A DNA stretch of 25,191 bases from contig CALSCQ010001058.1 of assembly GCA_943704525.1 (NCBI GenBank), positions 1 through 25,191 of the forward strand. Reading direction: 5' to 3'. The notes under the pieces are model-generated. The model made no database searches and was not told where the DNA came from. It was given only the letters and a program-made list of their open reading frames with translations. Both the position numbers and the translations under genes were made by a program. This stretch comes from Pigoraptor vietnamica. Its lineage: Eukaryota > Opisthokonta > Filasterea. This document shows, piece by piece, positions 4,170-9,672 of the stretch (positions are counted from its first letter, which is position 1; every line of letters starts with the position of its first letter).

Positions 4170-5477
4170 CTATTGTTGAGCGCACATTTGCGAAGTCCGC
4201 AGGGAAAAGCGCTTGACGGACGTTGTCTTGACATCGCGTGCGTGCGACTGCAGCGAGAAGCAGCGCTGGCGTGAGCCCGAGAACAAGTGGCATTCGTATA
4301 CAGCGCACATGCCCACCTTATCCGACGCACTCGACACGGAATCGCGCCGCTCCCTCCCCACACTCAGCTGCCCGACTGCGGGGAACAAGGTCAGCGAAGG
4401 GAGGACACACACAGCGCACTGAAGAGTACAGGACGCGCCGTGATTGCTCACTTTGTGCAGCGAGGTTGTTAATGGACTCCTGCGATCCGAGGTACACGTT
4501 CTCGAGGTAAGGAATGAGACTCGTGCCCTTGAATGGGTCGCCGTGAGTGCCCGCGGGAATGGGGACGGGCGGGGCGTTGCGCGGGTGCTCCATCACAAAC
4601 CACCTGCGTCACAGTGAGCGCGTGAGCAACAGCACTGATAAACGATACAACTCGTCACCAACAGATATAGAGAGAGCATTGCGAAATGGGCAGACACGCG
4701 ACGACAAGTCAAAGCTGCAGTCGTAGCGTCCATCGATTCCCACAGGGCACGAGAAAGGAGTTGCGAGTCACCCACGGGTGCTGCTTGATCCGCGGCACGG
4801 ACATTCGCGTGTGCTCGTTTACGTCCAGCATTCCTGCAAGCAAGGAAGCACAACAACATTAAAAACGACAGTACAGATATCTCGCCGCGAGCGCGGGAAA
4901 CAGTATTGGGATTTCACACTGACGGATTTTCGCGACTGTCGTTTAGTGCGCGTGCACGAGACGAATCCACTCATTGACTCACCGCGCAAGAGCTCGGTGA
5001 GGAGCGGATCGACGTCGCTCGGAATTGTGTACTCTCCCTTTCCAATGTTCTCGAACAGGTTGTAAATGTTGTCGCCCTCAAACGGATACTTGCCCGTCAC
5101 GATGTTATAGCTGCGGTCACACGGGGGAGAAAGAGGGCAAGTCAACCGAGTGAAAGTGAAACACAATTTGCAAGCGCCTAATAGAAGAACGCAGCGCGGC
5201 CATCGTCGCTGACGCACCATGCTAACGCCAAACATGATAACCGCGCTCATGCACCGTGTGCGCCCACGCAACGCGCCGAGAAGTGCGCAAGCGCATCACC
5301 CACAGGCTCACGCCGGCCGCCCACACGTCGACCTTGAAGCCGGAAAAGTGCTCGCAGCCATTGGCGATCTCCGGCGGCTGGAAGGCTGGCGATCCGCTGC
5401 TGCTGGTGCACGTGTCGCTGGGGTTGAAGCGGTCCAAGATCTGCATGACCCGTCGGTTGAGTTTTGTGTGATGCGAT

Positions 5478-5513
<36 letters not shown>

Positions 5514-6959
5514 ACACACACGCACATACACACGCACGCACACACACACACACAAACACAGGCGCACGCACGCAGCCGCATGCACGCATAGACACATCAG
5601 CCCAAAATGACGCGTGCATTATGCGTGGCATGCGAAAAAGAGGAGACGCACCTCTGCGACACCAAAGTCGGAGATCTTGAGAGTGCCGTCGCGCGTGAGG
5701 AGAAGGTTGCCGGGCTTGATATGTGCGCGATTTAAAGTGGATCAAGGGCACAATGACACGACCCCGCTTTTCTTCCAATACGCACACACAAGAAAACCCT
5801 CGGGCATTGAGACACACGGAAAGCAACACAGACATCACAACATGCCGAATATGCATCTAACGTGCGGATATCCCTGTGGACAATGCCGTGGTCGTGCAAG
5901 TACTCGAGGCCGTCCACTAGCTGTCGAAAGTAGCTGCAAATAAAAGTGACCGCATGAGAAAACAGTTCACGCTCTCGTTCGAACGCACACGAGCACACGG
6001 CGAGACTACTGCCCATGCCATCGTCAAAACTGTACAGACATTGTCGATACGCGTGCGAGGAGTCACAAGCGTACGATAAATCGGGACAAAGCGTCGAAAA
6101 AATGCCGAGCATGCAAATCGAACGCGCCCAAGTGTGTGCGGACAGCAGTCACATGGTCCACCCACTGGTGCCCCTGCCAGACGGGGAGGCACTTGTTCGG
6201 TGCGCTGTCGAGGATTTCCTGGAGCACGCTTGTGCAATACTCCAAAATCATATACGTGCACGCAAGCATAACAAAGGTCGCAGAAAGAAGGGAGAAGGCA
6301 GCAGAAGGCAGCGGAGGAGGACATGGTCAAGGACGTTTTGCGAGAATGCAATGAAACCATGATAGGAGGTGCACTCGCGGGATGCACGTGTGTGCGTGTG
6401 TGTGTGCGTGTGTGCGCGCCGTGTGTGCGTGTACGTTTCCGTGTGTGTATGCATGTGTGTGCATGTGTGGTGGTGCGTGTGCGCGCGCATATTAGCACTG
6501 GTTGGCGGATATATCTTCTGCTTCTCCTCGTTGTACAGTAGCTCCACCAGCTGGACGACGTGTTTGTGCCTTAGTCGCCGTAGAAGGCTGATCTCTCTGC
6601 GCACCGACAACACATAAAATACACGCGACCGCAGTTTCAGAACATAAACGCACGCATGCAACACGGGCGTCGTACACAACAACAACCCCAGGACAAGCAG
6701 GAAGCGACAGCGCGATATATGCAGCCGCAACGCACCGTTTTACGTTCTGTTCGCCGTTGGGGATGCGTCGTAGCTTTTTCTTCTTCATAATTTTGACGGC
6801 GACGCGCACAAGTGTGGTGCAGTCGATGGCTTCTTTTACCTTGCCATACGACCCTGCATACACACAGGCGCATTTCGTCAGTGCAACCGCACGTACACTA
6901 TGTTGTCCTCTCAAACCACGCTCACGCACACGCACACACAACACACACACGCACACACG

Positions 6960-6998
<39 letters not shown>

Positions 6999-7106
6999 GC
7001 ACACACACACGCACGCACACACACGCACACACACACACACCAGACACACACACACACACACACAGAGGCACACACACACGCACACACACACACAAACACA
7101 CACGAT

Positions 7107-7137
<31 letters not shown>

Positions 7138-7455
7138 CACACACACACACACACACACACCCTCACACACATACACACACACAACACCCTCCCACGCACT
7201 TACACTCATCCTAGCAACCAATCCAATCCCACCTTCGCCAAGCACATCCCCCAATATGTACGACCCGACCATCTTTGGTATTTTCCTTCGCGGCACATAG
7301 AGAATCTGCGACGAATTCATCCTCTGAAAGAACATGCTCGGCTCCGCGTCGTCGTCGTCGTATCGACCCCAATCTTCCGCGCCGAGCGAAAACTCGGCAC
7401 CATGCCCGCCGTGAGCCACTGGCGGCGGTCCATCGCTGCCTTCTTCGTCCTCCAT
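4170..7455 (-). CDS. STK11: LKB1/STK11 serine/threonine kinase, complete
   Basis: Master kinase that activates AMPK-family kinases, acting in animals with STRAD and MO25. Twelve exons, 5' to 3': 7233-7455, 6736-6853, 6513-6596, 6166-6255, 5872-5933, 5652-5722, 5304-5440, 4983-5110, 4776-4833, 4452-4603, 4317-4375, 4170-4247; total 1260 nt, 419 aa. The start is the ATG at 7455, with an in-frame stop two codons upstream. Seen: [19 protein letters not shown] (glycine loop, ~64-82), catalytic Lys95 in VAVK, then [34 protein letters not shown] (Asp193), DFG (211-213), [14 protein letters not shown] and [17 protein letters not shown], all diagnostic of LKB1. Numbering runs 17 ahead of human throughout Lys78-Asp194. 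The C-terminus has a KRFS phosphosite-like motif and ends CAQQ, a CAAX box in the place of human CKQQ. Two introns are AT-AC. The first ~60 residues are acidic and not conserved. Confidence 0.97.
5479..5572 (-). repeat. (CA/GT)n microsatellite in an LKB1 intron
   Basis: Imperfect CA repeat (GT on the sense strand) in the intron between the exons at 5652-5722 and 5304-5440, starting close to that intron's 3' splice site. Confidence 0.9.
5723..5871 (-). other. Second AT-AC U12-type intron in LKB1, at the catalytic loop
   Basis: The donor is ATATCCGCAC after CACAGGG; the acceptor CGCGCAC precedes ATATCAAGCCC. Splicing restores [11 protein letters not shown] across the active-site Asp193 codon (G|AT). 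The branch element CCCTTGAT lies at plus 5741-5748, its A 19 nt from the acceptor, a standard U12 spacing. Human STK11 has no intron here. Confidence 0.87.
6256..6512 (-). other. AT-AC U12-type intron in LKB1, same position as human STK11 intron 2
   Basis: The gene-strand donor is ATATCCGCCA after ...CAGAAGAT; the acceptor is GTGCAC before GTATATGATT. Splicing gives K-M-Y-M-I-L-E-Y-C with the intron inside the Met codon (AT|G, phase 2). No GT-AG pair preserves frame and motif. A U12 branch element TCCTTGAC lies at plus 6326-6333, 71 nt from the acceptor, with no AG between. The intron also holds a CA microsatellite on the sense strand. Confidence 0.85.
6385..6490 (-). repeat. (TG/CA)n microsatellite inside the LKB1 U12 intron
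   Basis: Imperfect TG repeat on the plus strand (CA on the sense strand), in the 5' half of the AT-AC intron 6256-6512. Confidence 0.9.
6922..7192 (-). repeat. Long (CA/GT)n microsatellite in LKB1 intron 1
   Basis: About 270 bp of near-continuous CA with scattered CG, CC and AG interruptions, reading GT on the LKB1 sense strand. It fills most of the first intron (6854-7232). The His/Thr- and Cys/Val-rich open frames across it are artefacts. Confidence 0.95.
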
Positions 7456-9215: not shown

Positions 9216-9672
9216 ATGACGGACAACGTGAAGGTCGCGGTGCGCGTGCGGCCATTCATATCCGCTTGACGACCGAACTGTGTGTGCCTATTTCTGTGCT
9301 TCATCAAGCGAAGCTCGAGTGGAGTGTATTGTGTTTAACCGTGTGCGTATATGTGTGCGTGAATGGCAGTGAGTGTTTTGCTATAACACGTGTGCGTGAC
9401 AACCTATCGCCCGAGATCTTTCCCCTGTGTTCGATAAGTCCTTGACTGCGCATGGTGTTCACAATAGCCGCGAGAAGGACCGCAACGCCAAGCTCATCAT
9501 CAAGATGGAAGGCAACGCGACGTACATCTCGGATCCGAACGCGCCCGGCGAGAAGCCGAGGGAGTTTTCCTTTGACTTTTCGTACTGGTCGCACGACGGG
9601 TTCAAGGAGAGGGCCGACGGGTACCTCGAGCCCGCCAAATCGCAGTACGCCGACCAGGTGCGCCATAATGCG

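What the first reader, a model, noticed from the sequence alone, without database searches (positions are those of the whole stretch)
6256..6512. LKB1 AT-AC intron conserved at the exact human STK11 intron 2 position
Seen: the exon ends AAGAT, the intron starts ATATCCGCC and ends GTGCAC, and the next exon begins GTATATG, giving K-M-Y-M with the intron at phase 2 of the Met codon. Known: human STK11 intron 2 is a U12 AT-AC intron after c.374, phase 2 of Met125, and its +1 A>G mutation causes Peutz-Jeghers syndrome. Here the residue is Met142, with a constant +17 offset from human. Inference: this minor-spliceosome intron predates the split between animals and this protist and has kept even its rare AT-AC termini.
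Basis: partly seen in the sequence, partly recalled or inferred. Interest (0 to 1): 0.88.

Follow-up and report, generated by a model that had tools for sequence, protein, structure and literature searches.

The report
Minor introns with rewired start signal
An unnamed eukaryote with a small genome carries, in its LKB1 tumour-suppressor gene, a rare AT-AC intron at exactly the human position, but the start signal of this intron class differs by two letters in the introns found across its genome, alongside a change in the matching splicing RNA.

Summary
Observation confirmed. Window 6512-6256 (minus) is an AT-AC intron of an LKB1/STK11 gene in the codon and phase of human intron 2 (c.374|375, Met125; here Met142). 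Seven of ten introns in my model lie at the human position plus 51 nt.

A second AT-AC intron in the gene (5871-5723) and a third in the neighbouring kinesin-3 gene (9258-9462) have the same donor. Genome-wide scans pairing the donor with branch motif TCCTTRAC gave 7 AT-type and 10 GT-type hits: 7 of 7 AT-type are GC at +7/+8 where GC, GT, TC or TT could match; 17 of 17 keep C at +6. Homology spans the join in 14 of 17; three have only an open join. U6atac, U12, U4atac and CENATAC were found, U11 was not. U6atac's donor-binding stretch differs from consensus only at the three bases facing +6 to +8: two pair with the new donor, the third mismatches, and computed pairing energy is not improved.

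Best reading: an ancient minor intron in a genome whose minor-intron donor code has changed. No RNA evidence was available.

The parts
6256..6512 (-). LKB1 intron 3, AT-AC, donor ATATCCGCC, end GTGCAC; same codon and phase as human STK11 intron 2
6326..6333 (-). TCCTTGAC, probable branch-point motif of intron 3; A lies 71 nt before the intron end
   Evidence: a weaker site nearer the end is not excluded
6513..6596 (-). LKB1 exon upstream of the intron (ends ...NEEKQK and AT of Met142)
6166..6255 (-). LKB1 exon downstream (begins G of Met142, YMILEYC...)
5723..5871 (-). LKB1 intron 5, a second AT-AC intron (ATATCCGCACG...GCGCAC) inside HRD|IKPGN; no human counterpart among the boundaries compared
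   Evidence: AT-AC ties with five slid junctions of the same score, none of which has GT-AG, GC-AG or AT-AC ends
5741..5748 (-). CCCTTGAT, probable branch-point motif of intron 5; A lies 19 nt before the end
9258..9462 (+). Kinesin-3 intron, AT-AC (VRVRPF|NSREKD), donor ATATCCGCTTG
9439..9446 (+). TCCTTGAC, probable branch-point motif of the kinesin intron; A lies 17 nt before the end
4376..7455 (-). LKB1/STK11 gene as modelled from its start codon through ten introns; the 3' end is not settled

Best explanation
The feature is a minor (U12-type) AT-AC intron that shares descent with human STK11 intron 2, in a genome whose minor-intron donor code has moved from RTATCCTT to RTATCCGC. Shown: position and phase match human; donor +1 to +6 and the branch motif TCCTTRAC are those of U12-type introns; U12, U4atac, U6atac and CENATAC genes are present; the minor introns found carry GC at +7/+8; U6atac differs from its consensus, in the first 29 positions, only at the three bases that face +6 to +8. 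Inferred: U11 reads RTATCCGC first (its 5' end should carry GCGG or GGCGG in place of AAGG); U12 pairs with TCCTTGAC; the first CAC downstream (a YAG in the GT class) is the 3' site; U6atac then replaces U11 with pairs at +4, +5, +7 and +8 around a C-C mismatch at +6.
For: Unique best junction and seven introns at human boundaries +51 nt. Genome scan ATATCC+[GT][CT]+gap+TCCTTRAC: 7 hits, all GC, reversed control 0. RTATCNGC+gap+TCCTTRAC: 17 hits (7 AT, 10 GT), all C at +6, control 2; GTATCCTT with the same gap: 1 hit, control 0. Homology spans the join in 14 of the 17: all 7 AT-type and 7 of 10 GT-type (two of these weak and SNRPE by eye); the kinesin join too. U6atac 81.4, U12 73.8, U4atac 64.0 bits, all over cut-off. 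U6atac GCC in place of AAG, U12 and the branch motif unchanged. CENATAC/CCDC84 E 4.1e-15.
Against: No RNA evidence. U11 not found at E<=1 or E<=10. By nearest-neighbour energy this U6atac pairs no better with the new donor (-2.5 to -3.5 kcal/mol) than canonical U6atac does (-3.3), since it loses +6; ATATCGGC would suit it best (-9.7) but is not used in any of the 17 hits. The branch A of the LKB1 intron is 71 nt from the end, against an optimum of 11-13 nt (PMC3584512 section 4). In the GT class only GC and TT were tested at +7/+8; its one TT hit was not examined. ATATCCGC is not over-represented as a plain 8-mer in the 232-kb sample (8 seen, 6.4 expected).
Confidence: 0.75

Rival explanations
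1. The intron is the ancient U12-type intron the reader describes, and GC at +7/+8 is only mutational drift in a GC-rich genome with no change in recognition.
For: G+C is 0.56 in the window and 0.55-0.63 in the sampled loci; duplex energies show no net gain from the U6atac change.
Against: Drift should leave a mixture, but 7 of 7 AT-type hits were GC where three other dinucleotides could match, and the GT class gave 10 GC against 1 TT. The T-rich branch motif has not drifted, and U6atac changed exactly at the facing bases.
Confidence: 0.15
2. An unrelated AT-AC intron arose or slid to the same place independently of human intron 2.
For: The gene has another AT-AC intron (codon 193) absent from the human boundaries compared, so such introns have been gained here or lost in our line.
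Against: Same codon, phase and AT-AC type, with six other introns also at human positions +51 nt.
Confidence: 0.04
3. The junction is misread and the intron is an ordinary GT-AG or GC-AG intron.
For: Such pairs exist in frame nearby (11 tested).
Against: The best scores 175 against 199 and damages the conserved KMYMxxEYC segment.
Confidence: 0.02

Closest known systems
Human STK11/LKB1 intron 2 (U12-type AT-AC; Peutz-Jeghers +1 A>G mutation; PMC12366057 and PMC8329584, passages; Hastings 2005 seen only as a reference)
   Same: Gene, codon, phase 2, AT-AC termini, U12-type branch motif
   Different: Donor here ATATCCGC; a published account says the human mutant donor still matches the consensus apart from the subtype change; branch A 71 nt from the end here
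U12-type introns in general (5' rule RTATCCTT, PMC2846911 section 11; branch-to-end optimum 11-13 nt, PMC3584512 section 4)
   Same: RTATCC at +1 to +6, TCCTTRAC, AT-AC and GT-AG classes, U12/U4atac/U6atac genes
   Different: GC instead of TT at +7/+8; branch-to-end distance 12-71 nt in ten AT-AC introns
Physarum polycephalum minor introns (Larue 2021, not held; recalled as signals that co-evolved with the machinery; passages in PMC10228655 call them divergent)
   Same: A lineage in which minor splicing signals have departed from the standard
   Different: Physarum has more than 20,000 such introns (PMC8329584, passage); here the branch motif is standard and the donor shift looks uniform in the introns found
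Acanthamoeba castellanii U12 introns (PMC2846911 section 11)
   Same: Lineage-specific C-rich sequence at the donor side
   Different: There a C-rich stretch follows the consensus donor; here +7/+8 themselves change

Membership tests
Ortholog of human STK11 intron 2 | Same gene, codon and phase | tested here: met
   CDS 425 = human 374 + 51, phase 2 of Met142/Met125
Ortholog of human STK11 intron 2 | Present in lineages between this organism and animals | not tested
   No eukaryotic genomes other than the window's own were available
U12-type intron | AT-AC or GT-AG termini | tested here: met
   AT-AC
U12-type intron | Donor RTATCCTT, tolerant only at +5/+6 | tested here: not met
   RTATCC met, +7/+8 are GC here and in the other minor introns found; hence filed as a variant
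U12-type intron | Branch motif TCCTTRAC | tested here: met
   TCCTTGAC at 6333-6326
U12-type intron | Branch point close to the 3' end (optimum 11-13 nt) | tested here: not met
   71 nt for this intron; 12-47 nt in nine other AT-AC introns
U12-type intron | Genome encodes minor snRNAs | tested here: inconclusive
   U12, U4atac, U6atac found; U11 not
U12-type intron | Removed by the minor spliceosome | not testable with these tools
   Needs RNA or snRNA depletion

The most novel reading that the evidence does not exclude
An independent rewiring of the minor spliceosome: U11 and U6atac have both been re-templated so that the minor introns of this genome start RTATCCGC, with U6atac keeping a mismatch at +6 that may hold a GC-rich helix near normal strength, and the 3' site is found by scanning up to about 70 nt to the first CAC. 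Surveys scoring introns against RTATCCTT would miss such lineages and call them minor-intron-poor.
Probability: 0.5. Interest if true: 0.85.

Novelty: new variant of a known kind. Interest (0 to 1): 0.72.

Why it matters
The minor-intron donor is one of the most conserved short signals in eukaryotic genes. A genome in which it appears to have changed as a class, with changes at the facing bases of U6atac, makes donor/snRNA co-evolution directly testable and suggests that calls of minor-intron absence made with RTATCCTT profiles may be wrong for some lineages. If the organism is a protist, the LKB1 intron also ties a human disease intron to an ancestor older than animals.

Tried and rejected
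Rejected: a GT-AG or GC-AG junction for the intron; ATATCGGC, the perfect complement of this U6atac, as the true donor (11 in the sample, one with TCCTTRAC within 420 nt; 0 of 17). Uninformative: k-mer over-representation of ATATCCGC in 231,560 bases (8 seen, 6.4 expected). A coding-score scan for further donors put the four known ones at ranks 2, 9, 10 and 15; two other candidates, L013 9003 and L021 8442, were read and show no branch motif in that scan; the rest were not followed. U11: Rfam RF00548 gave nothing at E<=1 or E<=10; the motif shared upstream of U12, U4atac and U6atac plus an Sm-like tail found only U12, with one hit in the reversed control. Taxonomy: EF-1alpha was sought for its opisthokont insertion (recalled), but the contig ends just after codon 77. 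A viral-contig scan for the U6atac core found 0. A text search for papers holding at least two of U6atac, ATATCCGC, RTATCCGC, AUAUCCGC and GTATCCGC listed one unrelated paper. Rfam and tRNA scans of the window were empty.

Full report
What the sequence shows. The window is contig C424 of an unnamed eukaryotic assembly of 32.5 Mb in 1395 contigs. On the minus strand from 7455 it carries LKB1/STK11. My hand-built model has ten introns; its kinase part matches human STK11 (8vsu, E 2e-141), 200 of 299 residues identical over an ungapped stretch. Among 2278 in-frame, stop-free junction pairs nearby, AT-AC at 6512/6256 alone scores best against human.

Orthology. Human intron 2 lies between c.374 and c.375 in Met125 (PMC12366057, passages). 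My positions 341, 425, 515, 648, 785, 913 and 971 are human 290, 374, 464, 597, 734, 862 and 920 plus 51 (human boundaries from passages of PMC9406140, except 862, recalled). I placed junctions by hand with homology as a guide, so small slides were my choice. The other three introns (codons 75, 193 and 375) do not fall at those human boundaries; human c.1108 (recalled) may correspond to the last, in an unaligned region. The one at codon 193 is again AT-AC (5871-5723); there AT-AC ties with five slid junctions of equal score among 1655 pairs, and is the only one of the six with standard ends.

The donor is unusual. The published 5' rule for U12 introns is RTATCCTT, with a T allowed at +5 or +6 (PMC2846911 section 11). 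Both LKB1 AT-AC introns and a third in the adjacent kinesin-3 gene (9258-9462) start ATATCCGC. I asked the whole genome for ATATCC, then G or T, then C or T, then 102-132 bases, then TCCTTRAC: 7 hits, all GC, reversed-pattern control 0. With RTATCNGC: 17 hits, 7 AT and 10 GT, all C at +6, control 2. GTATCCTT with the same gap: one hit, not examined, control 0. Other dinucleotides at +7/+8 were not tested in the GT class. At +9 the 20 introns read C 11, T 5, G 2, A 2 (tallied). Hits were nearly all on the forward strand (7:0 and 16:1), which I cannot explain, so counts may be lower bounds. In a 232-kb sample including the window, four AT-AC introns were recognised, three of them in the window, all ATATCCGC.

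Are the hits introns? All 7 AT-type loci were read, and homology spans each join: phosphatidylserine synthase 2, NSUN5, PWP2, beta-amylase, FH2 twice and MCM_bind. The kinesin peptide had no Pfam hit but aligns across its join to kinesin-3 chains. The ten GT-type hits were fetched in short pieces. Nine show an open join at a YAG. Of these, AP-1 mu and PP2A B55 match solved chains across the join, RasGEF and Ion_trans are clear Pfam hits, a transporter (EamA) and a WD-repeat protein are weak ones, and three (L042, L043, L049) have no Pfam hit. The tenth, L048, found no open YAG join by script, but by eye reads as SNRPE, VQPI|NLIFRYLQ, at a TAG (sequence; SNRPE letters recalled). So homology supports 14 of 17.

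Anatomy. In ten AT-AC introns the branch A lies 71, 19, 17, 14, 47, 47, 24, 36, 12 and 27 nt before the end, and the end is the first CAC at least four bases past the A in 10 of 10. The published optimum is 11-13 nt (PMC3584512 section 4). I had chosen the acceptors by frame and homology, so this is an observation, not an independent test, and a first-YAG rule was not tested. For LKB1 a weaker branch site nearer the end cannot be excluded.

Machinery. Rfam models find U6atac (81.4 bits), U12 (73.8) and U4atac (64.0), all over cut-off, and the U4atac and U6atac stretches folded form a continuous helix (-31.1 kcal/mol). CCDC84/CENATAC is present; its role in AT-AC splicing is recalled. U6atac reads GUGUUGUAUGA-GCC-GAGAGAAGG where the consensus reads GUGUUGUAUGA-AAG-GAGAGAAGG. 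By the standard pairing (recalled) these bases face donor +8, +7 and +6. G and C pair with the new C and G; the third, C, faces C at +6. U12 keeps the stretch that pairs with the branch motif (-7.1 kcal/mol) and that motif is unchanged, an internal control.

Against. Computed duplex energies show no net gain: this U6atac with the new donor -2.5 to -3.5 kcal/mol, canonical U6atac with it -3.3, canonical with canonical -5.7, this U6atac with the canonical donor -3.4, with ATATCGGCT -9.7, and a hypothetical GCGG U6atac with the new donor -8.7 to -9.7. The U6atac change is co-located with the donor change but only partly compensatory. U11, which reads the donor first, was not found. There is no RNA evidence.

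How it most likely works. U11 (not seen) reads RTATCCGC, U12 pairs with TCCTTGAC, the tri-snRNP brings U6atac, which displaces U11 with four pairs around a mismatch, and the first CAC downstream is joined (a YAG in the GT class). That the +6 mismatch keeps a GC-rich helix from being too stable is conjecture.

What is known. Larue and Roy (PMC10639083; abstract, sections 24 and 30, passages) survey over 3000 genomes and flag Cyanophora as possibly having transformed minor splicing machinery. Bartschat and Samuelsson (PMC2846911; abstract, section 11) find no U12 introns in Monosiga and a C-rich stretch after the donor in Acanthamoeba. Physarum is the precedent for altered minor signals (Larue 2021 not held; recalled, with passages in PMC8329584 and PMC10228655). 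Passages only were seen of PMC8199999, PMC6865273, PMC2831892, PMC9887622 and PMC3012662. One text search found no paper pairing U6atac with RTATCCGC in the held library. I file this as a new variant of a known kind.

Noticed in passing
L004, L006, L027, upstream of U6atac, U12 and U4atac: A shared motif GTCCCAYAAG lies roughly 65-75 nt upstream of all three minor snRNA genes, perhaps the snRNA promoter element of this organism; with an Sm-like tail it found only U12 again.
   Followed up: partly
window 2026 (-), myosin gene: An intron starting GTATCCCGCC appears to end CCCACAG, with TCCTTGAC 101 nt after the donor; a possible GT-AG minor intron with a slipped donor.
   Followed up: no
L048:1-371 (C914): A minor-type GT-AG intron in what reads as SNRPE, a gene named in PMC8329584 (passage) among human genes with U12-type introns; whether the position matches was not checked.
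   Followed up: no
L031 (C292:81757-84889): A beta-amylase gene interrupted by an AT-AC intron, which may help to place the organism.
   Followed up: no
L036 (C137:24165-24395): The first 77 codons of EF-1alpha, 95% identical to the yeast query, end at the contig end, so its opisthokont insertion could not be read.
   Followed up: partly
L003 (C1204:5329-5436): A second kinase exon 53% identical to part of the LKB1 query.
   Followed up: no
window, introns throughout: Many long TG/CA runs: 588 bases in runs of six or more units in the window.
   Followed up: no
G000: Gapped-pattern hits fell almost only on the forward strand (7:0 and 16:1) although the genes are presumably on both; perhaps the reverse scan of gapped patterns is incomplete.
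   Followed up: no
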